Positions 12,359 through 46,197 of a stretch of DNA of 64,000 bases are shown one piece after another (the first letter of the stretch is position 1; each line of letters opens with the position of its first letter). Source of the stretch: Phanerodontia chrysosporium (taxonomy: Eukaryota; Basidiomycota; Agaricomycetes; Polyporales; Phanerochaetaceae); contig MJGA01000045.1 in assembly GCA_001910725.1 (NCBI GenBank), positions 78,192 through 142,191 on the forward strand, written 5' to 3'. Under the pieces are notes generated by a model, which was not told the origin of the DNA, ran no database searches, and saw only the letters and a program-made list of their open reading frames with translations. The position numbers and the translations under genes were made by a program.

Positions 12359-12915
12359 ATGAAGTTCTACAACAAGACCATCATTGCCCGCAACGCCGCC
12401 GCCCCCTACCCCTCCCTTGCCGAGCGTATCTCGCTTCGCAAGGAGACCCAGGAAAAGGTCTACGAGGAGGTCAAGGAGAAGCTGGCCGAGATTGAGTGCC
12501 CCAAACAGTGCGAGAAGTATCTCCTCCAGCGCGAGCGTAACCGTTGCACCGTCACCCATCCGGTCCTGAAGGCCAAGCAGGATCGCATCAACGAGAAGTT
12601 CGAGGAATGCCTCTGGGCACTCGAACAGGCCTCCAGGCTCATCATGAAGATGAAGGCACGCAAGCGTCTCGAGGACCGGATTTCGAATCCGGCTCCCTCA
12701 CTCCTGAGTCGCCTGGGCCCCCCTCAGCACCTGTCTCAAGAGGAGGTCGAGGAGACATACAGGAATGACGGCGATATGCAAGGCGAGGTCCCGAAAGAAG
12801 CAGGTCGTATGCAGAACTCGCACATCATTGATCGAACTAAGGAGATGATGAACTTGTTCAACACGGTAAACCTTCATTTGGTACCGCTCAGCGACCACCT
12901 CGTCGACATCGACAA
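12359..12915 (+). pseudogene. ORF0 of element Y2, truncated by the G3 insertion
   Basis: The first about 186 codons of the Y-type ORF0 (ATG directly after a TCACACAG acceptor), cut at 12915 where the G3 5' LTR begins right after the codons for a DID motif. Compared with the intact Y copy at 34625 it shows R-to-C, R-to-H, P-to-L and E-to-K changes, all explained by C-to-T or G-to-A transitions. The 3' part of Y2 (rest of ORF0, gag, pol) is not found on the far side of G3. The apparent ORF continuation beyond 12915 is LTR sequence. Confidence 0.8.
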
Positions 12916-13610
12916 TGTCACGGATGTGACGGTGTTGCCCTATTTTTCGCCGATTTTTGCCTATTTTCCTCGATTAATCCAACGGGCGAGCAGCCCTCGC
13001 GCCGTCTGGAGTCCTAGCCGCCCACACTCAGCACCTGACCACTTAGCGCCAGCGCCCTGATGGTGCATCACCCCTAGACGCCAGCGCATTCCGCTGCGCG
13101 CTCAGACACTGCCCAGATCACCGGTCTGCTCTGCAACCGGTTCCCTGGATCGCCGAGGAGGCACTGTCATCCCTGATGACTCCCCTCGCCGAGACACACC
13201 GAGCTGATCAGCCTGATGACACAGCCTCGGCCGGACGCAGCCTCGAGACACTGCCAGCTGACACAGCCTCGTGACATAGCCCCCGCACAGCCTCGCCGCA
13301 CAGTCCGCGTCGCAGCCTCGCTGGCTATGCTGAGCGCTGCCAATCAGCTTATGTAATCGTATAGCCTGCCCTAAAGGACCTGTAGTATATAAGGGTAGCT
13401 CCCCTCGCTCCTGTCTGTCATCTCGACCTCTTGGTCAATACGGACAGGTAAGCCCGTGGATTGTATTGTAGTTATAGTGCTAATACTATCTTGGTCAATA
13501 CGGACAGCTGTAGAAGTTGTGCGTCGCTGCGTGACTCGCTCCGCCGCGCCTCGTCGTCGTCCTCCCCATCTGCCCTCCCTCGTGCGGCGTTGAGCCCTTG
13601 CTCCGCAACA
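12916..13610 (+). repeat. 5' LTR of Gypsy element G3 (695 bp)
   Basis: TGTCACGG...CAACA, the same length as the 3' LTR at 20629-21323. It has a TATATAA box at 13386-13392 and a predicted transcript start at 13420, whose first 10 nt pair with 13613-13622. It contains two copies of an 18-nt direct repeat flanking a 60-nt intron-like insert (13448-13507). It differs from the 3' LTR at many positions and almost completely in the insert. Confidence 0.88.
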
Positions 13611-13703: not shown

Positions 13704-14489
13704 AGTACGTCGTAGTCGAGCAGTCTGCTCACTCCGTGCACGTTGCTAAGGCTTGCATTTGCAGTGCCGAAAGACGTTCGTCGAAGCGCGGCCTCTCTGC
13801 CCCCGAACGCACCCCTCCTCAAAGACCACATCCCCCAACGCATCTTCGACCGCCTCCAACGTCGTCGCGAGGCCGGCAACCCCGTTAAGTGGACAGATCG
13901 CAAAGTCAAAGCGGTCATCAAGTACGTCTCCACGCTCCCGACGCCCCCGCCTTCCATTCCCTCCATCAACTGGACCGCCGTTCGCAAAGCTCGCGAAGCC
14001 GAACAAGGTGTAGGCAACCGCATCTGCGAGCAGCGCCAACGAGAGGGGCAAGAAGCCCAGGCCGCCGTAGCCGCCTCCTCCTCGAAGCTCAGTTTGGCAG
14101 AGCGCCTCAGTGCCGCCCCGACGTACGAGCCCATCGCCCGCAAGCCCGTCGGCATTGACATTCCTAAGTACTCCCCCACCGATCTCATCAGCATCTTCAT
14201 GCCTAAACTCGACGCGACCATCAAGCGTCTCAAGGCCGTCGAGGAAGTCGACCTCTTCCACCTCGTCAGCAGCGACCGCGCACACGGCGTCTGCCAGCTG
14301 CTCGAACACCTTCGGCAGATCCGCGCCGAGCTCAGTTGTCTCGCCCCCACCACCACGTTTAAGGAGTGGCACCAGTATGAGCTCGGACTCGCTCAAATCG
14401 GTGACATTCCGTTTGTCAGTTTAATGCGTAACTTCCGCTGCATCGTGGGAGAGCTAGATATCGTGTACTGGGCCGGCTATTTTGATTAA
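13704..14489 (+). CDS. ORF0 of Gypsy element G3 (extra ORF before gag), spliced start
   Basis: The frame is open from before 13743 to the stop at 14489 but has no suitable in-frame ATG near its start. A 60-nt intron 13705-13764 (GTACGT...GCTAAG...GCAG) joins the A at 13704 to TG at 13765 and creates ATG-CCG-AAA, giving about 241 residues. The protein is charged, with a LAERL-type segment in the middle and a C-terminal part resembling the ORF0 of O and Y (an EW/RW block followed by an F...R block). No known domain recognised. It lies between the primer site and gag in all three families. A GTG at 13764-13766 without splicing is an alternative start. Confidence 0.5.
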
Positions 14490-15613
14490 ATACATACATT
14501 TTCTGTTGCTCTGGATTTCAATTGTTCGAATTGTCTGCACTTCTTCGGGCGAACCACAGAGAACGGTGTCACTGCTGTCGTTGATCTCCACATCGAGGAG
14601 AACAACGGGTCTCGAGAAGTCAGAGAGTGCAGTCAACAGCCCTGCCCTCATCGAGAGACTGCCCCTCCGCTACTCCTGGTTCCGCCTAGCGACCGAGAAA
14701 CACAATTTGAGCGCCCTCGTTTCGCGCAGCAGGTAGAATTCGCCCGCGCCTCCGCTACTACCCCGAATACTCCCGATCGCAGTCCCCGGACAGCAGCCAT
14801 CACTCGTCTCCCGAGACATCGCTCGGCTCCGTCCTCTCCGATCACGAACCCGCTCCCTCGCCCCTCGATCTCTCTCGCGCTCACTCAGGAGCCAATACTC
14901 CCCGTCCCCCCAATATGTCGAGCACTCCCGGTGGAGCGCCGCCCAGTCCGGCTCCCCCCCACCCCATCCCTGCTGCCCTCCTGCAAATGGCCCAGGCAAT
15001 AACGCAGCTCACAAACACGGTTAACACTCTGGCCCAGACTATTGGCGCCAATCGGACAACGGTCAACGCAACGGTCAATGCCAACAAGGAGCTCCCCTTC
15101 GTCGAGAAACCCATGCCGTTCAAAGAAAAGGGTTCAGACACAGCCCGCCTCTTCCGCGCCGCCTATCGCATCTACGCCGACGGACAGCTGGAGAAGTTTG
15201 GCAAGCGCGACGTCAACGGTAACCTCGAGCGGGACGCAAACACTGGCAAAATCCTGGTAGACGGCCAAAAGTGGATCGTCGGCGCTCTCTCATTCACGCA
15301 GGACGAAGTGGCCGAATGGGCACGGCAGTACATCGAGCAGGCAGCAAACGGTACACAGATATTCGACGGCTCCCACGCTACGTTCTGGGAGGCTTTCAAG
15401 AACCGGTTTGAACCCGTCGACGAGAAGGCCAAGGCTCTCAGCAAGCTGCAGGCATGTACGCAAGGCAATCGTCGGTTCGCGGAGTTCTTTGCGGAGTTCC
15501 AAGCCCTCGCCGGTCGCACGAAGCTCATCCCGGAAGATCTGGCAGCTCGGCTACAGACAAAGTTCAACAAGGACTACCTCGAGCGGATCTCGTACATAGT
15601 TAACCCCAGCACC

Positions 15614-16282
15614 TGTCGCGGAGCTAGGGCTCAACGCTACACGAGGGAGGGCGGATGGGGATGACGACGACGAGGTGCAGCGGAGCGAGTCACGCAGCGA
15701 CGCATAACTTATACAGCTGTCCGTATTGACCAAGGTGTATTAGTGGGCTATTCTACTTTACAAACGAGGGCTTACCTGTCCATATTGACCAAGAGGTCGA
15801 GATGACGGACAGGAGCGAGAGGTGCTACCTATATATACTACCAGAGTTCAGGGCAGGCTGTACGGTTACATAAGCTGATGGGCAGTGTTCAGCACAGTCG
15901 GCGAGGCTGCGACGCGGGCTGTGTCATGAGGCTGCGTCAGCTGGCAGTGTTCCGAGGCTGCGTCGGGCCGAGGCTGTGTCAATCAGGATGACAGCTCGGG
16001 GTGTCTCGGCGAGGGGAGTCATCAGAGATGACAGTGCTTCCTCGGCGATCCGGGGGACCGGTTGCAAGGCAGACCGGTGATCCGGGCAGTGTCTGAGCGC
16101 GCAGCGGGATGCGCTGGCGTCTAGGGGTGATGCGCCATCAGGGCGCCGGCGCTGCATGGCCAGGCGCTGAGCGTGGGCGGCTAGGACTCCAGACGGCGCG
16201 AGGGCTGCTCACCCGTTGGATTAATCGAGGAAAATGGCCAAAAATCGGCGAAAAATAGGGCAACACCGTCACATCCGTGACA
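15614..16282 (-). repeat. Solo LTR, G3 family (669 bp), inserted in G3 gag
   Basis: Terminal TGTC...GACA, minus orientation, flanked by perfect 5-bp duplications GCACC (15609-15613 and 16283-16287). It contains the 18-nt repeat pair around a 59-nt GT...AG insert (15717-15775, minus strand). Confidence 0.92.
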
Positions 16283-20625: not shown

Positions 20626-20628
20626 TAA

Positions 20629-30553: not shown

Positions 30554-30960
30554 GACGGACAGCGGTCAGTGGCAGTTGTCCAACGGGTGATCAGGCCGGA
30601 GGGTCGCCAGAAAAGGGGGAAGGGGGAGAAATGAAAAGTACTACGAAAAGCTTGTTAAGCTCGAGAAAAGAGAAAACAGAGGTTCAAAATATGTGAGGAT
30701 AGCCTCTCGTGAACGAGGAGGAGTATCCGCACAAGACGAAACAGAGCTCAGACGAAGTAGAGAACTGGAGAAAGTACTCGATTCTCGGGGTAAGAGCAAT
30801 GCATACAGGAGGAGACGGGCTCTAGCTAGACTATATAGTATAGAGCATGTGACTACTACCTAAACAGTACAGTAAGTGTGATAAGGAAAGGGGCTGAATA
30901 AGAGTAAGTGCACGGTGTTACCGTGCGATTAGTCATAGGTAGCTAAATTGGTTACTGATC
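30554..30960 (-). other. Leader and probable 5' LTR of G2; junction with truncated O pol
   Basis: No ORF. The minus strand contains a TATA-like TATACTATATAG (about 30830-30842) and, nearer gag, TGGCGACCCTCCGGC (about 30593-30607), which could be a tRNA-type primer site, but no LTR boundary could be fixed because the partner LTR is missing. At about 30960 the sequence changes to the O pol frame. Confidence 0.4.
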
Positions 30961-33214
30961 CCTTATAGCCTACTCGCTTTGGTGCCAGTTTCTTGGAGGG
31001 AACGCGAAGGTTCAGATCCTTTGCGTCAAGCCAAACACGGTCTCCGACCTTGAACAAGGGTTCTGATTTACCCTGGCCGTAGTACCACTTCATTCGCTCT
31101 GCAGCCAGCACGAGCGCGGCTTTTGCCTGATCTTGGGCCTCCTGTCTAAGCTTCGTCCAGTCGTCCAGTTCTGACAACCTTGTAACACGGTCCTGCTCTG
31201 GGAACATGCATGGATGACGGCCATATTCGACAAAGAATGGCGAGTTCTTGATGCTTTCATGCGCCTGGTTGTTGTACGCAAACTCGGCAGAGGGCAAAAG
31301 GTACGCCCAGTCGTCCTGCCTAAAGCTTGTGTAGCAGCGCAGATACTGCTCCAATGACTGATTAACTCGCTCAGTCTGACCGTCTGCCTGAGGGTGGAAC
31401 GCTGTAGTCATTGCTGACTTGATCCCCAAGAGTCTGCACCATTCCTGGAAGAGTTTCGTGGCGAACTGCGTTCCTCTATCCGAAATGATCTGTCTGGGTA
31501 GGCCGTGCAAAGGCCAAACGCGCTCATAGAGCAAATTTCCCAGATCCTTGGCTGAAAACTCCTTGGTGATGGGGAGGAAATGTGCTCGCTTGGTTAAGCG
31601 GCAAACGACTACAAAGATAGCATTATAACCGTCCGACTCAGGCAAGTCCGTGATCATATCGCATGAGATTATCTCCCAGGGTTCTGATGGAACCTCATTC
31701 GGCTGTAGCAGGCCAGCAGGCTTCTGGTTGACGTTTTTATGCAACTGGCAGACTTCGCAACCTGCGACGTACTTCTTGATGTAAACTGACATTCCTGGCC
31801 ACCAGTAGTTGCGCGACAGCAACTCTAACTTCTTCCATTGTCCAGGGTGTCCAGCCCCAGGGAAGTCGTGGTGTAACTTGAGTAGATCCGCCCTAATCTT
31901 GTTGTCCTTGGGCACATACACCTTGCCTCGGTGCAGTAGTAGCCCGTCCTCGAGGTGTCATTCCGCTAAGTCCTTCCCGAACTCTCTTGGTCCTTTCAAC
32001 ATCAGGTCTTTGTACGACTTGGTGACTTCGTCGTCTAGCAGGGCTTTTCTGATCCTTTCTAGCAGTTTGCTATCATCCAGTATCGATGAATGGGTTGGTT
32101 GCATGGCTCGAATCGCGAAATATTCTGGCTTCAAAAGGACTTTTTCACGATTGTCGCAATCCACCCCCAATTCATGATCTGGCCTCCTGGACATTGGATC
32201 AGCCCGCTTCATCGTCTTTCCAGGCTTGGGCTCCAACTTGAAGTGAAAACGTGTGAGGAAAAGACTCCAACGTGCTTGACGTCGCGTCAAGTCTTGTGCC
32301 TTGCGGAAATAGGTCAAATTCTGGTGATCTGACCATATTTCAAATGGTAGAGGATGTCCCTCCAAATGGTGGCGCCATTCCTTCAGCGCGCAGATGATGA
32401 CTAGCATCTCCTTGTCGTATATCTCGTAGTTGCACTCATATACGCCTAGCGCCTTGGAGTAAAACGCGACAGGGTGCCAAAGGCCATCCTCGCCCAGTTG
32501 CTCAAGTACAGCCCCCGTAGCAAAGTCTGACGAATCGCATTCGAGCCTGAAAGGGTGCTAGTCATCTGGAATCTTGAGAATAGGCGCAGTAGTGAACGCT
32601 CTCTTGAGCGTATCGAAGGCATCCTGCTGCTCAGGCCCCCATTCCCACTCTTTGCCTTTGCAGGTAAGCTCTGACAATGGGCGAACAATCTTGCCAAAGT
32701 CTCGAATAAACCGTCGGTAGAAGTTGGCAAAATCCAGGAAAGCCTGGACATCTTTGACCCTTTTAGATATGGGCCAAGATAAAACGCCATCTACCTTTGA
32801 TGGATCCATCTGAACCGACCCCTTGCTGATGATCATTCCGAGGTATTCAATGCTATCCGTCTCGAAGAAGCATTTTTCTGGCTTAGCGAACAGGTTGTTG
32901 TCGCGTAGCCGCTGCAATACCTCGTGAACTAATCGGCGATGGTGGTCCAAGTCATTTGTGAAGATGAGAATGTCGTCTAGGTAGACCATGACATGCCCTT
33001 CTCGAATCAGGTCATCGAGAATATGGTTCATCATGCGCTGAAAGATGGCTGGTGCATTGCTGAGGCCGAAGAACATCACCGTAGGTTCGTATAAACCAAA
33101 AGGTGTCATGAAGGCCAGCTTCCACTCATCTCCTTCCTTGATTCTGACGTTGTTATACCCCCATCTTAGGTCAATCTTGGTGTATATACTGGCCTTAGAT
33201 AGTCGATCTATAAG
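30929..33214 (-). pseudogene. Pol of Gypsy element O, distal part (RT to integrase), truncated
   Basis: Continues the O reverse transcriptase interrupted by Y: removing Y and one ATAAG copy joins 41834 to 33214 in frame. Seen: RT with YLDDILIF (about 32990), RNase H (CDSSDF, DKEMLVI, DHQNL), integrase HHCC (HHDFPGAGH, CEVCQLHK) and core D,D,E (SDRGTQF, HPQADGQTER). In-frame stops at 32558-32560 (TAG) and 31958-31960 (TGA in place of the expected Trp codon). The frame ends within the GPF/Y region (KLAPKRVG) at about 30965, so chromodomain, 3' end and 3' LTR are lost. The last residues before the stop at 30929 are not element-like. Confidence 0.88.
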
Positions 33215-33746
33215 TGTCACAGTTTTCTAATTCCCTACGGTTTAATTCTCGTAAGCGCCCAGTAGGTGCTAGGGGTTAGGGTTATGGACTAGGGTTAGGA
33301 CAGGCACGCGTCAGAACGCGGTCACGTGTTGGTCACGTGCTGGGAATGGACTCAGAGTCATGTGAGGATCTTATCTTTATCTTATCTATGATGTAGACGC
33401 TCCGGTACAAGGGTATAGTAGGTAGCCGGACCCAGAGTCCGGGTAGTGTATTCTAGAATAGCGTAGAAGGTTCCGGACACATCCGGTACTCGGCTTTAGA
33501 CTTCGCCGAGCCCGGAGTGTCTTGGCAAGTATCGCACCATCATCACACCATCGTGCATGTGATGGGCAGTATCAGAAGTCTCGGGTAGTACCAGGGGTCC
33601 TCCCCTTCATGTATATATACCGGGCTCTGCTGGGCTTAAGTCCCCAGCATCATCTACCTCGTCTTTCACCCACTTCACTCGCACCCTCGCAGTCAAGTCC
33701 AACCCCACTTAAGCTACTAAGGTAAGTAGCGGGGTTTACTTTGACA
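33215..33746 (+). repeat. 5' LTR of element Y (532 bp)
   Basis: TGTCACAG...TTTGACA. TATATATA at 33612-33619; predicted transcript start AGCATCATCTA at 33646-33656, 34 nt after the TATA start; splice donor AAG|GTAAGT (GT at 33722). Telomere-like TTAGGG units at 33271-33300 in U3. Confidence 0.95.
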
Positions 33747-34624
33747 TTTAGATGATGCTATACCCCTTCGCGTCGACGTCGGCCTTAAGGGCTTGATCGT
33801 CGTGCGCAGCGTGCTCGACGTTGTTGCCGGCGACGTCGGCACCTTTTACTACTTATAATCTTGCGTTAGCAGGTTCGTCTCTTCGATGCGCGGCTACCAC
33901 CTGTAATAGGGGTAGTTCTTCATTCGTGGGGCTGGCGACTGAGGTCCACCTGTAAAAGGGGGCTGTACGTCGTCAGCCATGGGGTCGCATGGGCATTACT
34001 CGTCGAATTATCGCGAGTGATGTTTGTGTAGGCGGGTTCGAAGCGCACATCGACCTGTAATAGGCGATGCTGTGCTCGGCCTGTCCGAAGACCTAAACGA
34101 CTTGGGATCTGGGGGATACGTTGGGCCACCTGACAAGGGGCTTGATATATTGAGACCCATCGTTGGACGCGCGGCACCAGGAGTGCGACCACGTGGGCGG
34201 GCTGTGCAATACAGCATGGGAATCTTCTTGCCGAGCCACAGGCGTAAGTGGCCATGTGACGCGTGGGGTGTTGAGTCCACCGTACGGAACTAAGGCTTGT
34301 CCTCCACCGTGCGCAGGTGACTGCATCCCCGAGACTGGATGACAAGCGGTAAGATACTAGCATCTAGGAAGTCCATGGAGATCGTAGCCGTAAGGCACGA
34401 CAAACCATTTTCAGCGGGTGTGGAAACCTGACTGAGATCTGAAACTTCCCCATCGCGCATGTGCAGAGAGATAATGGCATGCCGTAACGACTGTACTCAC
34501 AAATGCGCGCGCACCAAGATTCAAACCGCAGCAAGAGAGGGCTGGTAACCCTCATTTTCTGAGCACTTTTCCTTCCATAAGCCGTACCTGTAAAAGGACG
34601 CTGGGTGATTATGTTATCACACAG
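33722..34624 (+). other. Predicted leader intron of Y (LTR donor to ORF0 acceptor)
   Basis: Donor AAG|GTAAGT lies inside U5 and acceptor TTATCACACAG lies immediately before the ORF0 ATG at 34625. The 903-nt interval contains the primer site and several CACCTGTAA-type short repeats (for example near 33898, 33948, 34052, 34588) but no credible ORF. Spliced RNA would lack the primer site, so it could serve as mRNA but not as self-primed template. Confidence 0.5.
33749..33759 (+). promoter_or_regulatory. Self-priming primer-binding site of Y
   Basis: TAGATGATGCT, 2 nt after the LTR, is an exact 11-nt reverse complement of the predicted transcript 5' end at 33646-33656. Same geometry in Y2, G3 and O. 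Confidence 0.75.
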
Positions 34625-35410
34625 ATGAAGTTCTACAACAAGACCATCATTGCCCGCAACGCCGCTGCCCCCTACCCCTCCCTTGCCGAGCGCATCTCGC
34701 TTCGCAAGGAGACCCAGGAAAAGGTCTACGAGGAGGTCAAGGAGAAGCTGGCCGAGATCGAGCGCCCCAAACAGCGCGAGAAGTATCTCCTCCAGCGCGA
34801 GCGTAACCGTCGCACCGTCACCCGCCCCGTCCCGAAGGCCGAGCAGGATCGCATCAACGAGGAGTTCGAGGAACGCCTCTGGGCGCTCGAACAGGCCTCC
34901 AGGCTCATCATGGAGATGAAGGCGCGCAAGCGTCTCGAGGACCGGATTTCGAATCCGGCTCCCTCACTCCTGAGTCGTCTGGGCCCCCCTCAGCACCTGT
35001 CTCAAGAAGAGGTCGAGGAGACATACGGGAACGATGGCGACACGCAAGGCAAGGTCCCGAAAGAAGCAGGTCGTATGCAGAAGTCGCACATCATCGATCG
35101 AACAAAAGAGATGATGAATTTGTTCAACGCGGTAAACCTTCGTTTGGTACCGCTCAGCGACCACCTCGTCGACATCGACAAGGTCGACAAGGAGCTAGGC
35201 GACGAGGTCTCGAAGTTGCTCGTCGACTTCGAAGACTTATACGACCACTTCGACGAGAACAAGGGGAGAAAGAAGTTGAAGGGAAAGCATTACAGGTGGA
35301 TTACGAGGGATTTAAAGAAAATAAAATATGTATCCTTCGAAAATTTTAGTACTCGATATGTAGAGATCGCAAGGGAGCTCGTTGCTCTCAATATCTCATT
35401 CGAATACTAA
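34625..35410 (+). CDS. ORF0 of element Y, extra ORF before gag
   Basis: 261 residues from an ATG directly behind a consensus acceptor. The protein is highly charged. A long helical, probably coiled-coil segment occupies about residues 20-110 (rich in E, K, R), followed by a KRLEDRISNPAP segment and a C-terminal part with RWITRDLKK and a final aromatic-rich stretch. O (44475-45205) and G3 (13704-14489) carry similarly placed proteins with matching blocks: L-DRI/L-ERL in the middle, then EW/RW-xxxxRDLKK and F...R...RELI/RELV at the end. No known domain recognised. Y2 has the same ORF, decayed. Its retention as an intact frame in a young copy argues it is used. Confidence 0.75.
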   Translation: MKFYNKTIIARNAAAPYPSLAERISLRKETQEKVYEEVKEKLAEIERPKQREKYLLQRERNRRTVTRPVPKAEQDRINEEFEERLWALEQASRLIMEMKARKRLEDRISNPAPSLLSRLGPPQHLSQEEVEETYGNDGDTQGKVPKEAGRMQKSHIIDRTKEMMNLFNAVNLRLVPLSDHLVDIDKVDKELGDEVSKLLVDFEDLYDHFDENKGRKKLKGKHYRWITRDLKKIKYVSFENFSTRYVEIARELVALNISFEY

Positions 35411-35543
35411 ATCCACCTGTAACCCGATGTAATAAAAACTCCACCTGACACTGAACTTCTGTGTGATACATAAGAGTTTTCCTTACTTTCCAACTGTAAA
35501 AGTGGAAAGAATTTGTACTAACATACCTTTTGACTAAGAAACA

Positions 35544-37105
35544 ATGGCTGACGCTGATCAAATCGCTCAAATCAACTGGACCGACATCAACTTGTCCTCG
35601 GACAATATCCAACTCTCTCACGAGACCACGGTTCAGGCCATCTCCTCGGTCGCAGCACCAGAGGAAATATCGCAGAACCAAAGGATCTTCATCCAAGAAT
35701 CGATCTACGCAGGGGTTGTTGAAGCCTCCCGTCAGAACGAGGCCCACGTGAGGCACCTATTCGATGGGTTCCTCAACATTTTTAACGCGGCTATGACATC
35801 GATTCTGGAGAGGGTGGACGAAGTCCGCCATGAGCTGGTCGAAACCCAGAAAATCACCTATGTTCAGGAAGCCTCGCTGGAAGGCGTCAGGGGGCTCGCA
35901 GAAAATGCGATCAAACAGTTGAACGCCCTCCCAGCCGGTATCGGTTCAGGAGGTGGCGCACCTGCTCGCCCCAAGTCCGCCCAACCGCCGCTCTTCTCAG
36001 GCGAGAAGAATACGACGAAGTTTGAGGAATGGAAAAATCTGGTCGAACTTTGGAACAGCACCCAGGGCATCACGACGGACAAACAGCGCATAGTCAATGC
36101 GTTGTCCCTGTTGCGCGAACCAGCCCTGAAGCTGATGCAACCACTGTTGGACAAGAACGCCAGGGGCGAGGACATGGGCTCGGTCGACAGTTTCTGGGCT
36201 AGTCTCCAGACGGTTTACGGTCAAAAGGATGTTACGCGCACGGCAACGAAGGACCTCGAGAAGCTACTCAACGACAAGTCGGCTCTCCAGAAGGACATCA
36301 TCGACTACTCGGTTCGCTTCAAGGTACTCCTCGACAACAGCAGCAAGCCGTTCACGGATGCGCACATGATTAACAAACTGTACGACAACGTCGAGGAGAA
36401 GCTGGGCATCTTCGTGCTGGGTCGCGGTCGCTCGAGTTGGCCTATAACCGCGTCAGAATTCATGACGTATCTCGTTGAGGCATACAAGGAACTCTACCCC
36501 GACCGCGCAGCGACGCACATCTTCAGCAAGGGAAACTCGCACGGCTCGGGTTCTACACCGGACCCGAATGCTATGGACATCAGCGCGGCTCAGACGGGCA
36601 AGGGCAAAGGCAAGGGGAAACAACAGGCGAATTCACAAGAAGCCAAGAAGGTTTCAACTCCCTGCGCCATTTGCACCGAGCTGAAGAAGTTCGCGCGTGC
36701 TAAAACGCACGTCACTTCGGACTGCTTCTCGCTCAAGGACCAGAAGCCGCAACAGTCTTCCGGTAACAACAACGGCAAGGCCTCCTCCTCGAGCGGGGGA
36801 GTAACAATCAAGGAAAAGGCAAGAACGCGGCGACAATTGCTGCCAAGAAAAACTCCTTCAATCAAGCGAAGGCCAGGATGGCCGAATTAGAGAAGGAGAT
36901 CGCAGGACTCGAGGCCGACGACGAAGTCGTCATTAATGCGGCCCGTATCCACGAATGGACGGAGGAGGACGAGAAGGAGTTGAAACAGACTCCCCCCCAG
37001 GAACCCGTTGATGAGCGGGAAGCTAGGCGTGCACGTATGAGGGCCCGAGCTGCTAAATACGCGAAATCGTCTGACCGGAAAGTGGATTTTCTCAACGACC
37101 TGTAG
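35544..37105 (+). pseudogene. Gag of element Y, with a one-base frame break
   Basis: The ATG at 35544 (AACAATGGCTG context) opens Gag: helical N-terminal part, capsid-type region (about 35980-36500), a CX2C...H...C zinc-type segment (about 36661-36724) and a basic/Ser-rich linker. At a G5 run (36795-36799) the coding frame moves by one base, as if one G of a G6 run were lost; reading on in that frame (NNQGKGKNAATIAAKK) reaches the acidic C-terminal tail and TAG at 37103-37105. The original frame stops at 36890. This is either a true mutation or a base-calling error in a homopolymer. Confidence 0.75.
37084..37090 (+). promoter_or_regulatory. Candidate -1 ribosomal frameshift site, Y gag-pol
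   Basis: G-GAT-TTT read in the Gag tail frame (GAT at 37085). The pol frame is open only from 37075, after TGA 37072-37074, and Gag stops at 37105, so any -1 shift must occur in this 30-nt window. O uses the same heptamer. Confidence 0.6.
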
Positions 37106-40100
37106 TGGATCCCTGCGTCCTACAGGTTAATAACGCTGATCATGTACCCACGGCCGAGTCTACACTGGATGTAGATAGAGTAATTGACATTGATGTATTG
37201 AACGTCTCGCGTAATAAATCATTATCGTTCAAACTTCCTATTACTCTGTGGGTGTATGGTAAAAAAGCGCAGGCAGAAGCCCTGGTTGATTCAGGCGCCA
37301 CGACGAGTTTCATCAATCACAGCTTCGTCGAAAAGAACAATCTGGTAACTATTAAGTTGGCAAATCCGTATGAAGTAAAAAATGCGGATGGAACGATCAA
37401 TAAAGCAGGACGAATCACTCACGCCCTGCGAGCCTACTTGGAAATTGGAACACACAAACACACCCAATACTTGCTCGTGACAGATTTGCACGACAAAGAC
37501 ATGTACATAGGGTACAAGTTCCTACACCGGCATAACCCAGAAATCGACTGGGCAAAAGGCAATTGGGAGTTCACCAGATGTCCTGAATCATGCAAAGTCT
37601 CCAGCATGGCACAGAAAGTCCAAGCCCTCGACATCGAAATCGGCAATGACGAGGAGCTGGCAGAGCTCGAACCAGAGCAACCTTGGGAATCCTCACTGGA
37701 CGATATTGGAGAAGAGGATATTCCCCACCACATCAACTGGGTTGATTTCAGTAACCCAGAGGAACGAACGCAAGCCGAGGCTGTCGCTGACATCCTGAAA
37801 AAGGATGACGACGATACAGTCGACACCTCGCAATGGAAATCACAGGTACCGAGTTGGGTCCACAAATTCGAAAGCGTATTCAGTAAAACCAAGTCTGAAC
37901 GCATGCCCACCCACAAACCATGGGATCATGCCATCGAATTTGAGGAAGGAGCAAAATTGCCCCCAATCGGAAAGGTGTACCCACTAGACCAGAGACAACG
38001 CTCGTCTTTCGACGAGTGGATTCGTGAGGAACGCCGAAAAGGCTACATAGAAGAGTCGAAGTCACCCATCGCTGCATCATTCTTTTTCGTAAAGAAGGCC
38101 GATGGTAGTTTGCGACCTTGCATGGATTACCGCCCCTTGAACGGAATTACAAAGAAAAACCGCTATCCTATCCCTCGCATCGCCGACTTAATCGACGCAC
38201 TGTCTCAGGCGTCGATATTCACAAAAATCGACCTTCGATGGGGATATAACAATGTCCGCATCAAGGAAGGTGACGAGTGGAAAACGGCTTTTGTAACCAA
38301 GGATGGTTTATTCCAGGCCAAAGTTATGTACTTTGGATTCGCAAACGCACCGGCAACATTTCAGAATATGATGAACAACATTTTCGAAGACCTTATCCGT
38401 CAAGGAAAGGTTATGGTCTACCTCGACGATATCCTCATCTTCGGCAATGACCGCGAGGAACATCAAAAGATCGTACACGAAGTGTTGCAGCGACTGGAAG
38501 ACAACGACCTCTTCGCAAAGGCAGAAAAGTGTCTATTCGAGAAGGACAAGCTCGCCTATCTCGGCATGATTATATCCAAAAATCATGTAGAAATGGACCC
38601 TGCTAAAGTCACTGGCGTAACGGAGTGGCCCGTACCGACCAAGGTCAAGCACGTTCAGGCATTCCTTGGATTCGCGAATTTCTATCGCAGGTTTATTAAA
38701 GACTTTGCGAAGATCACGAAGCCACTCACGGTACTCACCAAGAAGGATCAACCATGGGAATGGGGCCCCGACCAGCAGAAGGCGTTTGACGATCTGAAAA
38801 AGACGTTCACTTCTGCACCAATTCTACGAATTCCGGACGACGTTAATCCGTTCAGGCTCTCTACCGACGCGAGTGACTTCGCGATCGGCTCGGTTTTGTC
38901 ACAACTCGACCCAAACGATAAGCTTTACCATCCGGTAGCCTTCCACTCCAAGTCACTCAATGTTCACGAAAGGAACTATGAGATATACGACAAGGAGATG
39001 TTGGCCATAATCCGCGGGTTAGAAGAGTATAGGCACTATCTAGAGGGACATCCGGAGAAATTCGAGATATGGTCAGACCACCAAAACCTGACTTATTTCA
39101 AGCAGGCCCAGAAATTGTCTCGCCGTCAAGCTCGTTGGGCATTATACCTAACAAGATTCCATTTCACACTACACCACAAGCCGGGTAAAACAATGGAAGC
39201 TGAAGACCCTCTGTCCAGGAGACCAGATCATGAAGAGGGGGTAGAACTCGATAATCGCGACCATATTCTTCTGAAACCAGAATTTTTCGCCAATCTGCTC
39301 GAAGTCTGCGCGATCGACGCCTCCCATGACGCTCCAGTAAACGACGATTTACTGCTCCAAGAGGTCAAGAAGGCTCTGTTATCCGACGAAGTCACCAAGA
39401 ACTATCAATCGTTACTCAAATCAGGCCCACGCGAGTTCAAGAAACCGTTAGAGGAATGGAACTTTGAGAATGGATTGCTACTCTTCCGGGGTCATATCTA
39501 CATACCAAAGGATGAGAATGAGGACTTACGACGACGAGTAGTCCAAATGCACCACGACCACCCATCAGCCGGACATCCAGGCAGGTGGAAGACCTACGAA
39601 CTTGTCTCCCGAAACTATTGGTGGCCGGGAATGTCTGTCTTCGTCAAGAAATACGTCACAGGCTGCGACACGTGTCAGCGAATGAAGAATCGCACACAGC
39701 AGACCTACGGACAACTCATGCCCAACAAGGTACCTAATGGACCTTGGGAAGTTATTACCATCGACTTGATTACTCAGTTGATGCCGTCAAGAGGAAAGGA
39801 TGCCATTCTAGTCGTTGTATGCCGACTCACCAAGAGAGCACGTTTCTTCGCGATAACAAACAAATTCTCTGCTAAAGACCTCGCAAAGATCCTGATGGAT
39901 AAAATTTACCCTATCCACGGACTACCTTTGCAGATAATCTCAGACAGAGGAACTCAATTCGCGGCAGAACTCTTTCAAGAATGGTGTAAGCTACTCGATA
40001 TCGAGTCAGCGATGTCTACGGCATATCACCCTCAGACAGACGGTCAAACAGAACGAGTAAATCAAGTTCTAGAACAGTACCTACGCTGCTTCGCTGATAA

Positions 40101-41256
40101 TGTCAATCACGAAGACTGGGTCGATTATCTGCCCACCGCAGAATTCGCCTACAACAATGCAGCACACGAAAGTACAAAGGACACGCCGTTCTTTCTAGAA
40201 TATGGTAGACACCCACGGGCAGGACCAACTCTCGACAAGCAAGCCAAAAGCAAAGACTTGAACGAGATATTCAGACTTAGACAAGACGCCCAAGACAAGG
40301 CCAAAGCAGCCCTACAACTAGCAGCGGACCGTATGAAGTGGTACTACGACCAGAACAAGCAAGAACTGCCGTTTAAAGTCGGCGACAAAGTCCTGCTGAA
40401 TTCAAAGGATTACCAAACCACTCAACGCACGCTGACACCGAGGTACCTAGGACCGTTCGAAATCATCGAGCAACTGTCCAAAGTAACCTTCAAGGTGAAA
40501 CTGCCTTCACAATATAGGGCATATCACCCGGTGTTCCACGCTAGTAAATTAATCCCCTATTCTACACCCTCCATCGTCGGCCAACGAGCCGCACCGCCAG
40601 AGCCAGAAGTTCATGACGGAGAGCTCGAGTACGAGGTCGAGAAAATTCTCAACCACAAGACTACCGGGCGTGTCAGGAAACGAAACTGGTACATGGTTCG
40701 GTGGAAGGGTTATGGGCCAGAAGAAGACAAATGGGAACCAGAGAGTAATCTGGAAGGTGCTAAAGAGAAGATCGCGGAATTTTGGCGCGTTCGGAACGAA
40801 GAAGCACCTATGGAAACAGACGGTTTAGAACTCGATGAAGAGGAAACCCTTCAAATCGTTCTAGATGGTGGAAAGACACCATCCAAGAGCACTACCGAGG
40901 CAGCAGGCTGGGACCTGTATGCAGCAGAAGATGCAACAATTCCAGCAGGAGACCGCAAACTCATCAGCACTGGCATTCACATTCGAGTTCCAACTGGGAC
41001 CTATGGACGAATTGCACCGCGATCAGGACTAGCACTCAAAGGCATTCATGTCGGCGCAGGCGTTATCGACCGGGACTACACGGGTATCGTCAAAATACTA
41101 CTCCTTAACACAAGCGACAGTGACTTCACAGTCACGACTGGAGATAGGACGGCTCAATTGATCCTGGAGAAAATTGCCGATGCCGATATAGAAATCGTCG
41201 AAACGCTACAGTCAACCGATCGTGGATCAGGCGGGTTTGGATCCACTGGAAAATAA
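37106..41256 (+). CDS. Pol polyprotein of element Y with C-terminal chromodomain and dUTPase
   Basis: About 1,383 residues with no stop, entered by -1 frameshift from Gag. Domains, numbered from 37105: aspartic protease ALVDSGATTSF about 60; reverse transcriptase with YLDDILIF about 438; RNase H (TDASDF, DKEMLAII, DHQNL) about 590-660; integrase zinc module HHDHPSAGH...CDTCQRMK about 815-860; integrase core D,D,E with ISDRGTQF and YHPQTDGQTER; GPF module (YLGPFEII); chromodomain YEVEKIL...VRWKGYG about 1172-1227; then a trimeric-type dUTPase about 1252-1383 with all five motifs (AGWDLYAA, APRSGLAL, GVIDRDYTG, GDRTAQLI, GSGGFGSTG). dUTPase hydrolyses dUTP to dUMP and would limit uracil in element cDNA. 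Catalytic residues of RT, integrase and dUTPase all look intact. Confidence 0.93.
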
Positions 41257-41296: not shown

Positions 41297-41828
41297 TGTC
41301 ACAGTTTTCTAATTCCCTACGGTTTAATTCTCGTAAGCGCCCAGTAGGCGCTAGGGGTTAGGGTTATGGACTAGGGTTAGGACAGGCACGCGTCAGAACG
41401 CGGTCACGTGTTGGTCACGTGCTGGGAATGGACTCAGAGTCATGTGAGGATCTTATCTTTATCTTATCTATGATGTAGACGCTCCGGTACAAGGGTATAG
41501 TAGGTAGCCGGACCCAGGGTCCGGGTAGTGTATTCTAGAATAGCGTAGAAGGTTCCGGACACATCCGGTACTCGGCTTTAGACTTCGCCGAGCCCGGAGT
41601 GTCTTGGCAAGTATCGCACCATCATCACACCATCGTGCATGTGATGGGCAGTATCAGGAGTCTCGGGTAGTACCAGGGGTCCTCCCCTTCATGTATATAT
41701 ACCGGGCTCTGCTGGGCTTAAGTCCCCAGCATCATCTACCTCGTCTTTCACCCACTTCACTCGCACCCTCGCAGTCAAGTCCAACCCCACTTAAGCTACT
41801 AAGGTAAGTAGCGGGGTTTACTTTGACA
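41297..41828 (+). repeat. 3' LTR of element Y (532 bp)
   Basis: Same length as the 5' LTR; followed by the ATAAG duplication. Confidence 0.95.
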
Positions 41829-41833
41829 ATAAG

Positions 41834-42889
41834 GTCTGAGATCTTGGGTATAGAGAAGTGGTCTTTCTTGACAACTTTGTTCAGCTTTCTGTAGTCTTGC
41901 ACCAAGCGCAATGAACCATCCTTCTTCTTCACGAAAAAGACTGGTGCTGCCAGCGGGGATTTACTCAGTCTGATATATCCCTTGGCGAGATTCTCCTGAA
42001 TCCACTCGTCCAGAGAATTCCTCTCTTCTGGCGACAGCGAGTAATTACGAGCTGGTCGAGGTAGTGTAGCTCCATCGATAAACTCGACAGCGTGGTCATA
42101 AGGCTTTCGTACGGGTAACCGTTCACTTACACACTTCGAAAACACGTCCCCATAGTCCTGATACTGTGCAGGGACAAGCTGCTCCCAGCCCTCGATTCCC
42201 TCCAGCGAACGAATACTGCACATCACTGCGATCTTCCGGCAGGTTACTGCCAAAACGCGGCCATCTGGGGTGGAAGGGTCGACCCACTGAAGCCAAGGCT
42301 TCTTTTCTTCCTCCTCGAAGTCCTCGTCCATGGGTTCTTCGAGCTCTGCTTGTGCTACTTGAGCCTTGTGGCTGGTAAAGCGACAAGAATCTGGGCATCT
42401 GGAGTACTTCCACTCGCCCTTATCCCAATCTATCTCAGGATTATGCTTCTTTAAGTAGCTAAAGCCGAGGAACATGTCCTTTCCACCCAGATCTGTAATG
42501 AGGCATGCTTGTCTGGAGACATGGTCCCCTACGGCTACGTCGAGCCAAGCGTACTCCTCAATACTGCCACACTTGTTCCTGGAGCCATCTACGTTGTAAA
42601 CGCGTATCTCCCTGGCCAGCTGGTTCGTCTTTAGCTTATGCTTCTTGACGAAGGGATGGCTAATGAACACAGCATAGGCCCCTGAATCAACCAGCGCGGT
42701 AGTCTGCACTCTGATTTCCTTACCCTGACTCAAAGTTACTGGAACGATAAAGCTCGATTTAGAGGGCAAACTAGAGACTTTTCTCGATTCCAAAACTGAT
42801 CTAATACACTCTACTGAGTCGGGAGGGTAAAGGAAATCTAAAAACGGACCAGATGTCGCAGACTCTACATTGGTCCCTGCAGAAAATCC
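41834..42889 (-). pseudogene. Pol of Gypsy element O, proximal part (protease and RT start)
   Basis: The pol frame opens directly behind TGA at the slippery site (42889) in the -1 frame of gag and is cut at 41829-41833 by the Y insertion. Protease site ALVDSGAYAVFIS (about 42690); RT N-terminal part with SPLAAPVFFVKKKDG and DYRKLNKV (about 41890-41970). It resumes at 33214. Confidence 0.88.
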
Positions 42890-44445
42890 TCATCGTCTGA
42901 GAACACCACGCGGTTAATCTTCTGCGCCTTCTCCTTCGAAGACGACTTCTTCTTTTGCTTGGTCTTGGGGGTATCTTCTTCTTCTGAGCTATCCGAGCTC
43001 GACTCCTCGTCAGAGGCTACCTCCTGGAATCTCTCCGAGTCGCTGGCGTACACCTCGCGCACACTGTTCTTCGTGTGGCGAGAGCCCTTATCCTTCTCCT
43101 TTCCCTTTGAAGACGAAGCCTTTGACGAACTGGCCACCGGTGCATTGGTGGTTTTACTCGACGACGTCGAAGAACCTGAGTTGTTCTTCTTCGATGGACA
43201 CTCCTTGGCGATATGGCCTTTGCCTCCACACTGAGCGCAGCAGCCTTTCTTTTTTGCCTCCTCGAACGACATGGCAACCTTCTGAACTTTGGTTGTCTTG
43301 CCTTTACCCTGGGCTGAGCCCTTCTTCAAGGCGTCGACATCCATAGCGTCAGGGTCTTTCGACGACTGAGGCTGTCCAGAGAGTACGGTGCCCGTCAAGA
43401 GACGTTGATCCTGCAGAATCTTCTGAACATCTTTCAACCAACCATCCCAGGTCGTAGCCCACTGAGCACGACCACGGGCTGCCAGTACATCGGCGGCGGC
43501 ACGAGGGGTATGGGCATAGGCTTTGACCAACAGTTCTTCGTTGGAGAAGCCGGTTTGACAGGCCAGCAAACGGAAACGAGCAGCAAACTCGTTGAAAGTC
43601 TTCTCGTTTGTTCCTTTCTTGCTGACAAGCTGCTCAAACTCTGCCCGTGCCCTGTCCTTCTTGACGGTCTGTTGGAATCCTTTCTGGAGTTTGTTCACAA
43701 AGTTGGTCCAAGTACCAAGGGGCTTTGAGTCTGCCACCTTGTCGAAGTACTCTTGCATGACCTTCTTTGCTGAACCTCGCAGGTAAGTCATTGCTGTCTC
43801 TATCTTCTTTTTATCGTCCATTACGCCACGGTGGCGCAATCAGAGTGCCATCGACTCGAGCCAGTCATCCAGCTTGCTAGCCTTATCACCATTAAAGGTG
43901 TCAGGCTCCTTCATGGTAGGGAACAAAGACTGAGACAACCCAACGTTGCCTCCACTAGTGCCTTGCTGAACCAACACTTTCAAGCTCTCGTTTTCCTGCT
44001 TCAGCACCTGCATAGCGCTCTGCAAAGTGCGATTTTGGTTCTGAGCCTCTGCTATCTGCGCAGACAAGTGCTGTCTAGTCTGCTCAAGAGTGTCTATCTG
44101 CTCCTGAAGTGTTTTGGCCTCGGTTTTGCGTTTGCGAAGGACTTCCTTCAAGCAAAGGACTTCTGAACCCATTTCCGACCTTACTTGAGCTATTTCAGCC
44201 TTTACCCAGTTACCCAGGCTGTCAATGAGGGCCTTAATGTCGCCAGGAGTCAGTCCTTTTTGAGCGGCTTGTACCCATGACTGGCTGTACTCTTCGTAAG
44301 AGGTCGAAAGCGGCGCAGCGGCCAAAACTGGGGTAGGGCCTCCCTCAGCCATAGAGCCAAGTTCTAACGCTCCCCAAGGGTCCATGCCACTTGAACTCGA
44401 AGCAGAACGCAAACCAAAGTCAACAGGATTTGAATTGAGCAACAT
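42865..44445 (-). pseudogene. Gag of Gypsy element O, with one in-frame stop
   Basis: ATG at 44445, then an N-terminal region with a clear coiled coil (heptad-like stretch LKEVLRKRKTEAKTLQEQID and beyond, about residues 95-165), an in-frame TGA at 43840-43842 (CGA-to-TGA possible), the capsid-like region (about 43830-43400), a zinc knuckle CX2CX4HX4C (about 43195-43235) and an acidic/Ser-rich C terminus. Without the TGA it would be about 526 residues. Gag forms the particle; the knuckle binds RNA. It starts 29 nt after the ORF0 stop. Confidence 0.85.
42883..42889 (-). promoter_or_regulatory. Candidate -1 ribosomal frameshift site, O gag-pol
   Basis: On the minus strand G-GAT-TTT in the gag frame, followed by CTGCAGGGACCAATG and the gag stop TAG. 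The pol frame has a TGA immediately upstream, so the shift must take place within about 25 nt, and this heptamer is the only slippery candidate there. Confidence 0.65.
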
Positions 44446-44474: not shown

Positions 44475-45205
44475 CTAATCGAGGTTCTTCTCCAAAAACA
44501 ACCAATCTTCACCCAACTCCTGAATCAGCTCCCTGCAATGCTCAGTGAAGCGTGGCTTAAGCTCAGTGAAGCTATGTGCGCCTGCCTTCTTCAAATCCCT
44601 CGAAATCTTCTTCCACTCCCTCGTGGTGTACTCCTTTGTCTCGACAATGGTCTGAAGGTGTTTGCGAATGTTGTCGAACCTCTCCTTGAACAAGCCCAAA
44701 ATGTAGAGCTCGTGTTCAGTCAACCCAACTCGAAAACGCTGCTCGTCTAGCTTTTGAAAGAACGAACCCAAGTGGTTAAGGGCGCCGTTGAACTTTCGTC
44801 CGTAGTCACGCAACTGATGGACCTGAGTGTTGGTGTGAAAGCGAAGGTCCTTGGGAATGGGTTTGACTTCGATAGGGGGAGTAGGGGGAGGTTCAATACG
44901 CTCGATGAGGGGGAGAGGGGGAGGGGCGTTCGCGATGCGATCAAGTAGGCGGCGCTTGCGCTGTTCGTTGCGATAGTCTTCGAGCTGAAGCTGGTGCTTG
45001 AAGTCGTTCAAGTCTGCTTCACGAGCAAGCCTTTCACGACGACCAGGGACAGGGGTGTAGGGTGTAGTGCGAGGTTTGTATGCAGGGCGCAGCTTCCCAA
45101 CGTCTCTGAAGCGGTGAAGGTTCGAGATCTTGATGCGCTCAAGCAAGGGTTTGCCAGAGCTCTCGTCCTTAGCGAGGACAAAACGGTTCTTAGCAGCTTT
45201 AGGCA
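44475..45205 (-). CDS. ORF0 of Gypsy element O, with spliced start
   Basis: The frame is open from 45287 but has no upstream ATG in context. An intron from 45654 (donor CCA|GTGAGT, inside U5 of the LTR) to 45206 (acceptor GTTTACTAG) joins A at 45655 to TG at 45205 and creates GCC-ATG-CCT-AAA, giving 243 residues. Features: basic N terminus; Pro-rich segment IANAPPPLPLIERIEPPP; helical C-terminal half with EWKKISRDLKK and RFTEHCRELIQEL. Related in layout and blocks to the Y and G3 ORF0s. The intron contains the primer site, so spliced RNA would be a messenger only. No known domain recognised. Confidence 0.6.
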
Positions 45206-45584
45206 CTAGTAAACACGGGTCAGCCTGTGTACACAAGCCAGAAAACTTCTCCACACAGGCAAAGTGCAAGGCTTTCCTGCCAGCCAACCCTCAACGAAGA
45301 GAAAAGGGGTTTTACTGCGAGTTTCCACGCCACGCAGCTAAAATTGGTTGGACAGGGTATTACACCCTTAGTCCAGCACTACAACAGGGGTTACTCGTCC
45401 GCAGGCAAAGCCCTCTGAGGTGGGTTACACCACGTTCCCCTGTCTGTACCTAAAAAGGTACTATAGTGCCCACTTACGCCTGTGGATTGGCAGAAAACTG
45501 AACAAAGCGCAAAAGCACTTGTTCAAACAAGCTCCCAGAACCCAAAGCAATAACCTAGGCCACCAAAGGTGGAGTAGGTTGGCT

Positions 45585-45595
45585 AGCTTCAATCT
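45585..45595 (-). promoter_or_regulatory. Self-priming primer-binding site of O
   Basis: Minus strand AGATTGAAGCT, 2 nt beyond the LTR end, exactly complementary to AGCTTCAATCT at 45746-45736, which starts 33 nt after the TATATAAA box (45779-45772). Confidence 0.75.
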
Positions 45596-45597
45596 TC

Positions 45598-46197
45598 TAT
45601 CACAAAAATGCGCTGCCCTAGCGCCTATACACCAAACCAACCAGCAATACTCACTGGCAAAGGTTTACTCGGACTACAAAGGGTGTAGCCAAGCTTGAAG
45701 ACGAGGTATAGAGGCTAGAGAGGTGAGATGCGATGAGATTGAAGCTTGGGAGGCACCCCCAGCCCTCAGGGTTTATATACATGTGCACCAGGTCCCCAGG
45801 GACTGGTGTTCAGGGTCCTAGCTATCTAATACCTACTACGCTATTGGCTAGTGCCCTACAGGCATTCCTACATTCTCCTACACGTTCCTAAATGTTCCTA
45901 CGATGTCCCAGAAACCTCCAGAACGTTCCAGCACTGTCCGGACCTGTCCAGAGACCTCCAGGACTTTCTAGTCCATTCTGGAGTGTCTCGGCGCTTCCAG
46001 ACCCTTGCCTGCTTCTAGACCTTCGATCATGTGACCCTGGGATACCGCACGTGTGCGCATCACATGACCGCCGTATCACGTGACCGGCCCCGAGTCTAGA
46101 GCTGTCACTTCAGCGCTTCTGCATGTCACAGTTCGGAGTAGTCGCTTCTGTCACCTGCTGCCCCTAACCCTAAGGGTTGAGACGAAAAACTGTGACA
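45598..46197 (-). repeat. 5' LTR of Gypsy element O (600 bp)
   Basis: Minus strand TGTCACAG...GTGATA (the end would be GTGACA before one C-to-T change). It contains the TATA box, predicted start and splice donor, and a telomere-like CCCTTAGGGTTAGGGG near its 5' end (46161-46176). Confidence 0.88.

What the first reader, a model, noticed from the sequence alone, without database searches (positions are those of the whole stretch)
34625..35410. A conserved extra ORF (ORF0) sits before gag in three different Gypsy families
Y (34625-35410), O (44475-45205) and G3 (13704-14489) each carry a 240-260 residue charged protein between primer site and gag. They are much diverged yet share block order: a basic or coiled N-terminal half, a central L-DRI/L-ERL segment near prolines, then EW/RW followed by DLKK-like and F...R...RELI/RELV blocks. 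G2 lacks it. I do not recognise the domain. A protein kept across divergent families, intact in the young copy, is likely functional (for example accessory, regulatory or Gag-related).
Basis: partly seen in the sequence, partly recalled or inferred. Interest (0 to 1): 0.75.

Follow-up and report, generated by a model that had tools for sequence, protein, structure and literature searches.

The report
Retrotransposon gene started by splicing
Three families of jumping genes in one fungus share an extra, well-preserved protein gene ahead of their coat-protein gene, and in two of the three it has no start signal of its own: the DNA suggests that cutting out a piece of the RNA builds the start signal, so splicing may decide which protein is made.

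Summary
Profile comparison joins Y to O over most of the length and O to G3 over the C-terminal half; Y and G3 are linked only through O. All three are under strong purifying selection (dN/dS 0.085-0.105, like gag). No known domain was found, and it is not Gag-related by profile.

In O, donor to gag AUG is AUG-free in 30 of 30 copies. In 24 G3 copies, AUGs before gag occur, apart from three, only inside a 60-nt intron-like stretch of the LTR. Each family has a consensus splice donor after A and an acceptor AG before TG-CCN-AAA, so splicing would build AUG-CCN-AAA.

Proposed mechanism: RNA keeping that intron shows ribosomes no AUG before gag, so Gag is made; one splice builds ORF0's start codon. 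Y instead has one LTR donor and separate acceptors before ORF0 and gag. No RNA evidence was available; splicing is inferred. The logic resembles AUG-free ORFs of rice tungro bacilliform virus, but the split start codon differs. ORF0's biochemical function remains open.

The parts
33215..33746 (+). Y element 5' LTR (3' LTR 41297-41828, 99.4% identical)
   Evidence: self-BLAST
33719..33727 (+). Y putative splice donor AAG|GTAAGT; exon ends 33721, intron starts 33722, 25 nt before the LTR end
   Evidence: AAG|GTAAG in 30 of 30 Y loci
34619..34624 (+). Y putative acceptor ACACAG immediately before the ORF0 ATG
   Evidence: AG kept in 30 of 30 loci through CACACAG, CACTAAG, CACATAG and a 2-nt length variant
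34625..35410 (+). Y ORF0, 261 aa
35516..35538 (+). Y putative gag acceptor: branch TACTAAC, acceptor ACTAAG, 5 nt before the gag ATG (35544)
   Evidence: AG in 30 of 30 loci, TACTAAC in 29 of 30
35544..36890 (+). Y gag
   Evidence: sub-threshold Retrotrans_gag and Ty3_capsid matches
37105..41256 (+). Y pol with RT, RNase H, integrase, chromodomain and dUTPase
   Evidence: Pfam
45596..46197 (-). O element 5' LTR
45206..45654 (-). O putative 449-nt intron: donor GCCA|GTGAGT (last exon base 45655, inside the LTR), branch-like CTGAC, acceptor TACTAG
   Evidence: donor and AG acceptor in 30 of 30 O loci
44475..45205 (-). O ORF0 body (TG-CCT-AAA...); with A45655 it reads ATG-CCT-AAA; 243 aa, no internal Met
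43840..44445 (-). O gag start (ATG at 44445, 29 nt after the ORF0 stop); a further gag ORF 42865-43839 has Retrotrans_gag and a sub-threshold CCHC match
12914..13610 (+). G3 5' LTR (3' LTR 20627-21323, 90% identical: an old copy)
13448..13507 (+). G3 putative 60-nt LTR intron (ACAG|GTAAGC ... CTAAT ... ACAG|); its end repeats the exon end CTTGGTCAATACGGACAG
13705..13764 (+). G3 putative 60-nt ORF0 intron, GCGA|GTACGT ... TTTGCAG|TGCC
   Evidence: donor and acceptor in 12 of 12 loci and 20 of 20 more
13765..14489 (+). G3 ORF0 body; with A13704 it reads ATG-CCG-AAA-GAC; this old copy has three ATGs inside it
14511..14914 (+). G3 coding-like N-terminal extension of gag without AUG, opening at a CTG 19-24 nt after the ORF0 stop in six loci; frame broken in this copy, open in six of six other loci L073-L078
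   Evidence: dN/dS 0.12 in the gag frame, over 2 in the other two
14915..15664 (+). G3 gag from its first AUG

Best explanation
ORF0 is an accessory gene of one clade of fungal Gypsy elements, expressed from a spliced RNA. In O and G3 its start codon is split by the intron (A at the end of the upstream exon, TG at the start of the ORF0 exon) and exists only after splicing. RNA that keeps this intron carries ORF0 as an AUG-free leader through which scanning ribosomes pass to gag. One splice therefore switches the same transcript from Gag to ORF0. In O the donor lies inside the LTR, so ORF0 mRNA would also lose the end of the LTR and whatever primer site follows it, and should not be copied; in G3 the ORF0 intron lies downstream of the LTR. 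In Y, where ORF0 has its own ATG and the leader is full of AUGs, one LTR donor would be joined to an acceptor before ORF0 or to one before gag. Shown: homology, selection, absence of AUG, splice-site sequences and their conservation. Inferred: that the splices occur, that Gag is reached by scanning, and the role of the protein. Most likely role, low confidence (about 0.3): a helper acting on the element's RNA or particles, from its basic, proline-rich N-terminal half and predicted helical C-terminal half.
For: (1) O: 0 ATG in any frame from donor to gag ATG, and 0 in the 100 nt of exon 1, in 30 of 30 loci (one search gave 29 of 30 because L052 holds two LTR donors and the script took the wrong one). 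Expected 9.0 in 1302 nt of L032; the reverse complement CAT is not depleted (13 against 10.1); gag has 22 ATG against 13.4 expected. (2) G3, 24 copies: exon 1 0 ATG (expected 3.6), leader exon 0 (23.2), ORF0 intron 0 (2.5), ORF0 2 (71.9), ORF0 stop to gag ATG 1 (41.7), but LTR intron 12 (16.2): AUGs are nearly absent except in a stretch bounded by splice signals. (3) No internal Met in 11 of 11 database relatives of O and G3 (P0007-P0017), six of them at 39-51% identity; the four Y relatives have 3-7. (4) O CCA|GTGAGT ... AG|TGCCTAAAG in 30 of 30; G3 CGA|GTACGT ... AG|TGCC in 32 of 32. Both join to ATG-CCN-AAR with a purine at -3. (5) Y: AG just before ORF0 in 30 of 30 despite sequence change; TACTAAC...AG before gag; 13-20 ATGs in the leader in the 29 loci counted but 0 in 100 nt of exon 1 in 29 of 30. 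(6) dN/dS 0.085-0.105. (7) Homology O-P0009 starts at the predicted exon edge.
Against: No RNA, ribosome or protein data. No spliced retrocopy for the three junctions searched: O ORF0 and Y gag (up to 3 mismatches), G3 ORF0 (up to 2), 0 matches each; the Y ORF0 and G3 LTR junctions were not searched. This is uninformative if spliced RNA is not copied, but no support. Within the young families the bases around the splice sites are about as conserved as the sites, so invariance there is weak evidence. Given the protein sequence, out-of-frame ATGs alone are not significantly depleted in a single ORF0 (O P=0.10; G3 P=0.09-0.56). Copies share ancestry, so summed counts overstate independence. Exceptions: L097 keeps an open ORF0 with 6 ATGs and has 10 before gag; the window G3 copy has 3; L063, L064, L065 have 1 each and the degraded L068, L069, L070 have 2, 1 and 1 in ORF0. 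P0009 begins MHKLTSFSLVPK: if that M is an ATG, that relative has an in-frame upstream start. P0010-P0017 begin with M, but a GTG called as start would give the same letter.
Confidence: 0.72

Rival explanations
1. ORF0 of O and G3 is started at the in-frame GUG (GUG-CCN-AAR) or another near-cognate codon on unspliced RNA, with leaky scanning on to gag, as with the AUU-started ORF I of rice tungro bacilliform virus. The splice-like sequences are coincidence.
For: It also explains the AUG-free stretch, the fixed TG-CCN-AAR and the lack of intron-free copies. In G3 the GUG has a G at -3. The RTBV precedent is described in PMC5902531 section 10.
Against: The GUG has a poor context in O (C at -3, C at +4). 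It does not explain consensus donors whose last exon base is A in both families, AG acceptors at the same codon, AUGs tolerated only inside the G3 LTR intron, or the Y layout.
Confidence: 0.17
2. ORF0 is a detached or ancestral part of Gag (matrix-like) and works as a structural protein, possibly fused to Gag by frameshift or splicing.
For: It sits just before gag, is helical and charged, and its stop lies 29 nt (O) before the gag start.
Against: hhalign probability at most 0.6% against the gag ORFs of the Y, O and G3 elements; no Pfam match above cut-off; in G3 the frame of ORF0 relative to gag differs between copies because of indels after its stop, so no programmed frameshift links them.
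Confidence: 0.06
3. ORF0 is a captured host gene or a chance open frame without function.
For: No known domain.
Against: dN/dS about 0.1; homology across three families. The 54 matches in the genome search with P0001 all align at 56% identity or more, with no separate, more distant host gene in that list.
Confidence: 0.02

Closest known systems
Rice tungro bacilliform virus and badnaviruses: leaky scanning through AUG-free ORFs I and II (PMC5902531: passages, and section 10 read whole)
   Same: Long ORFs kept free of internal AUGs over about 900 nt so ribosomes reach the next gene; RTBV also makes P4 from a spliced RNA.
   Different: RTBV ORF I starts at AUU on the unspliced RNA. Here the first ORF appears to get an AUG built by splicing, in a fungal LTR retrotransposon, ahead of gag. 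No sequence relation was tested.
Barley BARE1 (PMC3735527: abstract and outline seen)
   Same: LTR retrotransposon in which splicing makes a separate message.
   Different: There the spliced RNA encodes only Gag, from an element with one ORF; here splicing would select an extra protein over Gag.
ORF0 of rice Retrosat2, RIRE3 and RIRE8 (PMC3485330: passages seen)
   Same: Extra ORF upstream of the gag-pol ORF of an LTR retrotransposon, shared by related families, function unsettled.
   Different: Plant elements; [quoted passage not shown] Those passages name no AUG-free design or split start codon. Sequences not compared here.
'Additional ORF' and dUTPase-bearing fungal chromoviruses, e.g. PosPlaTy3 (PMC2864245: passages, and section 5 read whole)
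   Same: Basidiomycete chromodomain Gypsy elements; a C-terminal dUTPase in PosPlaTy3-4 as in Y; a figure legend lists an additional ORF of unknown function.
   Different: The position and sequence of that ORF could not be checked (figures are not held, supplements not looked up).
Yeast GCR1 (PMC7826247: passages seen)
   Same: Spliced and unspliced RNAs use different start codons.
   Different: Isoforms of one protein, with an intact start codon in each.

Membership tests
Chromodomain Ty3/Gypsy retrotransposon (chromovirus) | pol with protease, RT, RNase H, integrase and chromodomain between LTRs (Y) | tested here: met
   Pfam RVP_2, RVT_1, RT_RNaseH, Integrase_H2C2, rve, Chromo, plus dUTPase; LTRs
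Chromodomain Ty3/Gypsy retrotransposon (chromovirus) | same for the O and G3 copies of the window | tested here: inconclusive
   G3 pol ORF: RT, RNase H and integrase matches but no Chromo; O pol lies on both sides of Y and was not scanned; pol identity to Y 47% (G3) and 59-70% (O pieces)
LTR retrotransposon with an additional sense ORF upstream of gag | conserved ORF between 5' LTR and gag, same strand | tested here: met
RTBV-like translation through AUG-free ORFs (works-like, not membership) | upstream ORF free of AUGs in all frames | tested here: met
   O 30 of 30; G3 22 of 24 copies in ORF0, with exceptions listed; not Y
RTBV-like translation through AUG-free ORFs (works-like, not membership) | first ORF started at a non-AUG codon on unspliced RNA | tested here: inconclusive
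   No AUG is present; sequence favours a spliced AUG but GUG is not excluded
Gag family | profile similarity to Gag of the same elements or to Pfam Gag models | tested here: not met
Retrosat2 ORF0 family | sequence similarity to plant ORF0 | not tested
   plant sequences not fetched
Env-like additional ORF | ORF between pol and 3' LTR | tested here: not met
   it lies before gag; transmembrane segments not computed

The most novel reading that the evidence does not exclude
A split start codon (A|TG) in an AUG-free gene works as a one-step splicing switch between an accessory protein and Gag, kept in two divergent retrotransposon families and replaced in a third by alternative acceptors: a design not seen described for a retroelement in the listings of the paper searches made.
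Probability: 0.65. Interest if true: 0.8.

Novelty: new variant of a known kind. Interest (0 to 1): 0.7.

Why it matters
A retroelement RNA must serve as genome, as Gag message and here as message for a third protein. Making the third gene invisible to ribosomes until one intron is removed would solve this with a small sequence pattern and without a second promoter. It would explain why such genes could be missed by annotation (no ATG), and mapping where AUGs are tolerated becomes a way to look for introns of transposons from DNA alone. It also gives a definite test of how fungal LTR elements split RNA between translation and replication.

Tried and rejected
Programmed frameshift ORF0 to gag in G3: rejected, the relative frame differs between copies. 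Gag relationship: rejected. Known domains: only a sub-threshold coiled-coil match, LIP-1, for Y. PDB by profile: for Y/O the best match is a single-chain coiled-coil construct (E 1.4e-4), for G3 nothing below E 0.05. AlphaFold: G3 mean pLDDT 55, pTM 0.33; Y 75 and 0.41, with residues about 71-100, 161-210 and 241-250 near 90; both give two long then two shorter helices in the C-terminal half, but this is too weak to assign a fold. RNA families: none. A conserved 26-nt leader block shared by Y and O (24 of 26 identical) is not unusually stable as RNA (z 0.07 and -1.21). Relatives in viral contigs: none for Y, O or G3; in prokaryotic contigs: none for G3, the only one tried. Spliced retrocopies: none for three junctions. 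Searching the genome with divergent members P0009 and P0005 showed, by eye, no family clearly apart from O and Y. Scripts that failed and were redone. The G3 part of the synonymous shuffle used a wrong frame and is replaced. One search counted 7 leader ATGs in one O locus; one search shows that L052 has two LTR donors and recounts 0 in 30 of 30. Rows dropped: L088 and L097 failed the pattern and the window copy is outside the totals; include L088 and L097. G3 loci L061-L067, L071-L072 and L079-L098 were chosen from matches without listed internal stops, so their open frames are not evidence by themselves; Y and O loci were the 30 best of 54 and the 30 best of 127 matches, which may bias dN/dS down a little.

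Full report
WHAT WAS CHECKED. The only named relative of Y ORF0 in the protein search is a hypothetical protein of Phanerochaete sordida, PsYK624_170810, at 52% identity, so a basidiomycete host is likely (inference). Y is flanked by LTRs 33215-33746 and 41297-41828 (99.4% identical); O pol ORFs lie on both sides of it (30929-33220 and 41732-42793), so Y appears inserted in O. G3 has LTRs 12914-13610 and 20627-21323 (90%) and appears inserted in a partial Y copy. Y pol carries RT, RNase H, integrase, chromodomain and dUTPase. Y, O and G3 pol are 40-70% identical to each other and 30-35% to G2, so ORF0 goes with one clade here.

HOMOLOGY. Single-sequence comparison is weak. I collected relatives: four for Y, three for O, eight for G3. 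Profiles: Y-O probability 95%, E 3.5e-8 over 212 columns; O-G3 94.8%, E 4.9e-8 over 108 columns; Y-G3 not detected. One hundred column shuffles per pair never came near for Y-O and O-G3. The profiles do not match the gag ORFs of the Y, O and G3 elements. No Pfam family reaches its cut-off. The N-terminal half is basic in all (pI 9.7-11.6); the C-terminal half is predicted helical in the two models made, Y and G3.

SELECTION. dN/dS is 0.105 for Y (29 distinct of 30 loci), 0.085 for O (19 distinct of 30), 0.097 for the first 400 codons of Y gag (19 distinct among 21 unbroken of 29), and 0.091 for 29 G3 copies, 0.087 without L097. Ranking by protein similarity may bias O a little downwards.

NO START CODON. 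The O ORF0 frame contains no ATG. In 30 of 30 O loci there is none in any frame from the LTR donor to the gag ATG, and none in the 100 nt before the donor. In the window copy the last ATG before gag is at 45782, touching the TATA box. For L032, 0 against 9.0 expected over 1302 nt, while CAT is not depleted and the gag part holds 22. In G3, 27 of 29 copies have no Met in the 219-codon body compared. The window's G3 copy, an old one, has three ATGs in ORF0. Eleven of eleven database relatives of O and G3 have no internal Met; the four Y relatives have 3-7. A shuffle of synonymous codons within single ORFs is not significant for out-of-frame ATGs alone (P 0.10 in O, 0.09-0.56 in nine G3 loci), so the case rests on in-frame, leader and intergenic AUGs together.

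SPLICE SIGNALS. O: the LTR ends its presumed first exon in TTTGCCA|GTGAGT; the ORF0 body is preceded by CTGAC...TACTAG|TGCCTAAAG. Joining gives GCC-ATG-CCT-AAA. G3: AAAGCGA|GTACGT, an intron of 59-61 nt in near-intact copies, TTTGCAG|TGCCGAAAGAC; joining gives GCG-ATG-CCG-AAA-GAC. Between TATA and acceptor O (L032) has two GTRNGT donors; in the G3 loci checked there is one (L061) or two (L066, the second also after A, CAA|GTGTGT); in each family the one conserved donor named above makes the ATG. Y: AAG|GTAAGT 25 nt before the LTR end, ACACAG|ATG before ORF0, and TACTAAC-N10-ACTAAG 5 nt before the gag ATG. The Y leader has 13-20 ATGs and ORF0 7-12 in the 29 loci counted, so Gag could hardly be reached by scanning there; both messages would need splicing.

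AUG TOLERANCE AS A MAP. In 24 G3 copies (27 taken for the count; L088 and L097 failed the pattern, the window copy was left out of the totals), AUGs per segment were: exon 1 0 (expected 3.6), LTR intron 12 (16.2), leader 0 (23.2), ORF0 intron 0 (2.5), ORF0 2 (71.9), ORF0 stop to gag AUG 1 (41.7). Not every copy covers every segment: 19 copies for the first three, 24 for the ORF0 intron and ORF0, 21 for the last. AUGs are common only in a 53-60-nt stretch bounded by GTAAG and ACAG. This is what is expected if that intron is always removed and ribosomes scan the rest, ORF0 included, on their way to gag. Copies are related, so the sums are not independent trials. L097 is an exception with ten AUGs before gag, and L063 and the degraded loci L068-L070, not in the totals, have one or two in ORF0.

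GAG OF G3. The gag frame continues 135 codons upstream of its first AUG, under purifying selection in that frame (dN/dS 0.12; over 2 in the other frames; six loci), from near a CTG with G at -3 and G at +4. In six of six loci no AG lies between the ORF0 stop and this CTG, 19-24 nt on. A CUG-started longer Gag is the simplest reading (inference).

MECHANISM AND LIMITS. See Best explanation. No RNA data could be examined. Spliced retrocopies were not found for the three junctions searched, as expected if spliced RNA is not copied, but this gives no positive support.

KNOWN. RTBV and badnaviruses keep ORFs I and II free of AUGs for leaky scanning (PMC5902531). BARE1 makes a spliced Gag message (PMC3735527 abstract). 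Retrosat2 has an ORF0 before gag-pol whose relation to this one was not tested (PMC3485330). Fungal chromoviruses with dUTPase and an additional ORF are noted in PMC2864245. PMC7264820 and PMC3248453 were searched for passages only. Eight paper searches listed nothing, by the titles and abstract beginnings shown, that describes this ORF0 or a splicing-built start codon in a retroelement; most subscription papers are not held.

Noticed in passing
14511-14914 and loci L073-L078: G3 gag extends about 135 codons upstream of its AUG without any AUG in that frame; possible CUG start just after the ORF0 stop.
   Followed up: partly
13430-13507 and the same place in other G3 copies: An 18-nt repeat (CTTGGTCAATACGGACAG) ends both the exon and the 60-nt LTR intron, as if the intron arose by duplication.
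   Followed up: partly
34229-34254 (+), 11963 (+, partial Y copy) and about 45467-45492 (-): A 26-nt leader block, 24 of 26 identical between Y and O, containing a GTAAGT; purpose unknown, not a stable hairpin.
   Followed up: partly
33896, 33945, 34050, 34583, and by eye variants near 35412 and 35490: Repeated motif ACCTGTAAWAGG in the Y leader and ORF0-gag gap.
   Followed up: no
37105-41256: Y pol ends in a dUTPase domain after the chromodomain.
   Followed up: no
7001-9796, 48512-50893, 55097-57427: Three related long ORFs (71-82% DNA identity) resembling HET-domain proteins by eye (recalled, not tested).
   Followed up: no
L097 (G000 C96): A G3 copy with an open ORF0 but many AUGs and a higher expected AUG content (16.0), perhaps decayed by C-to-T change.
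   Followed up: no
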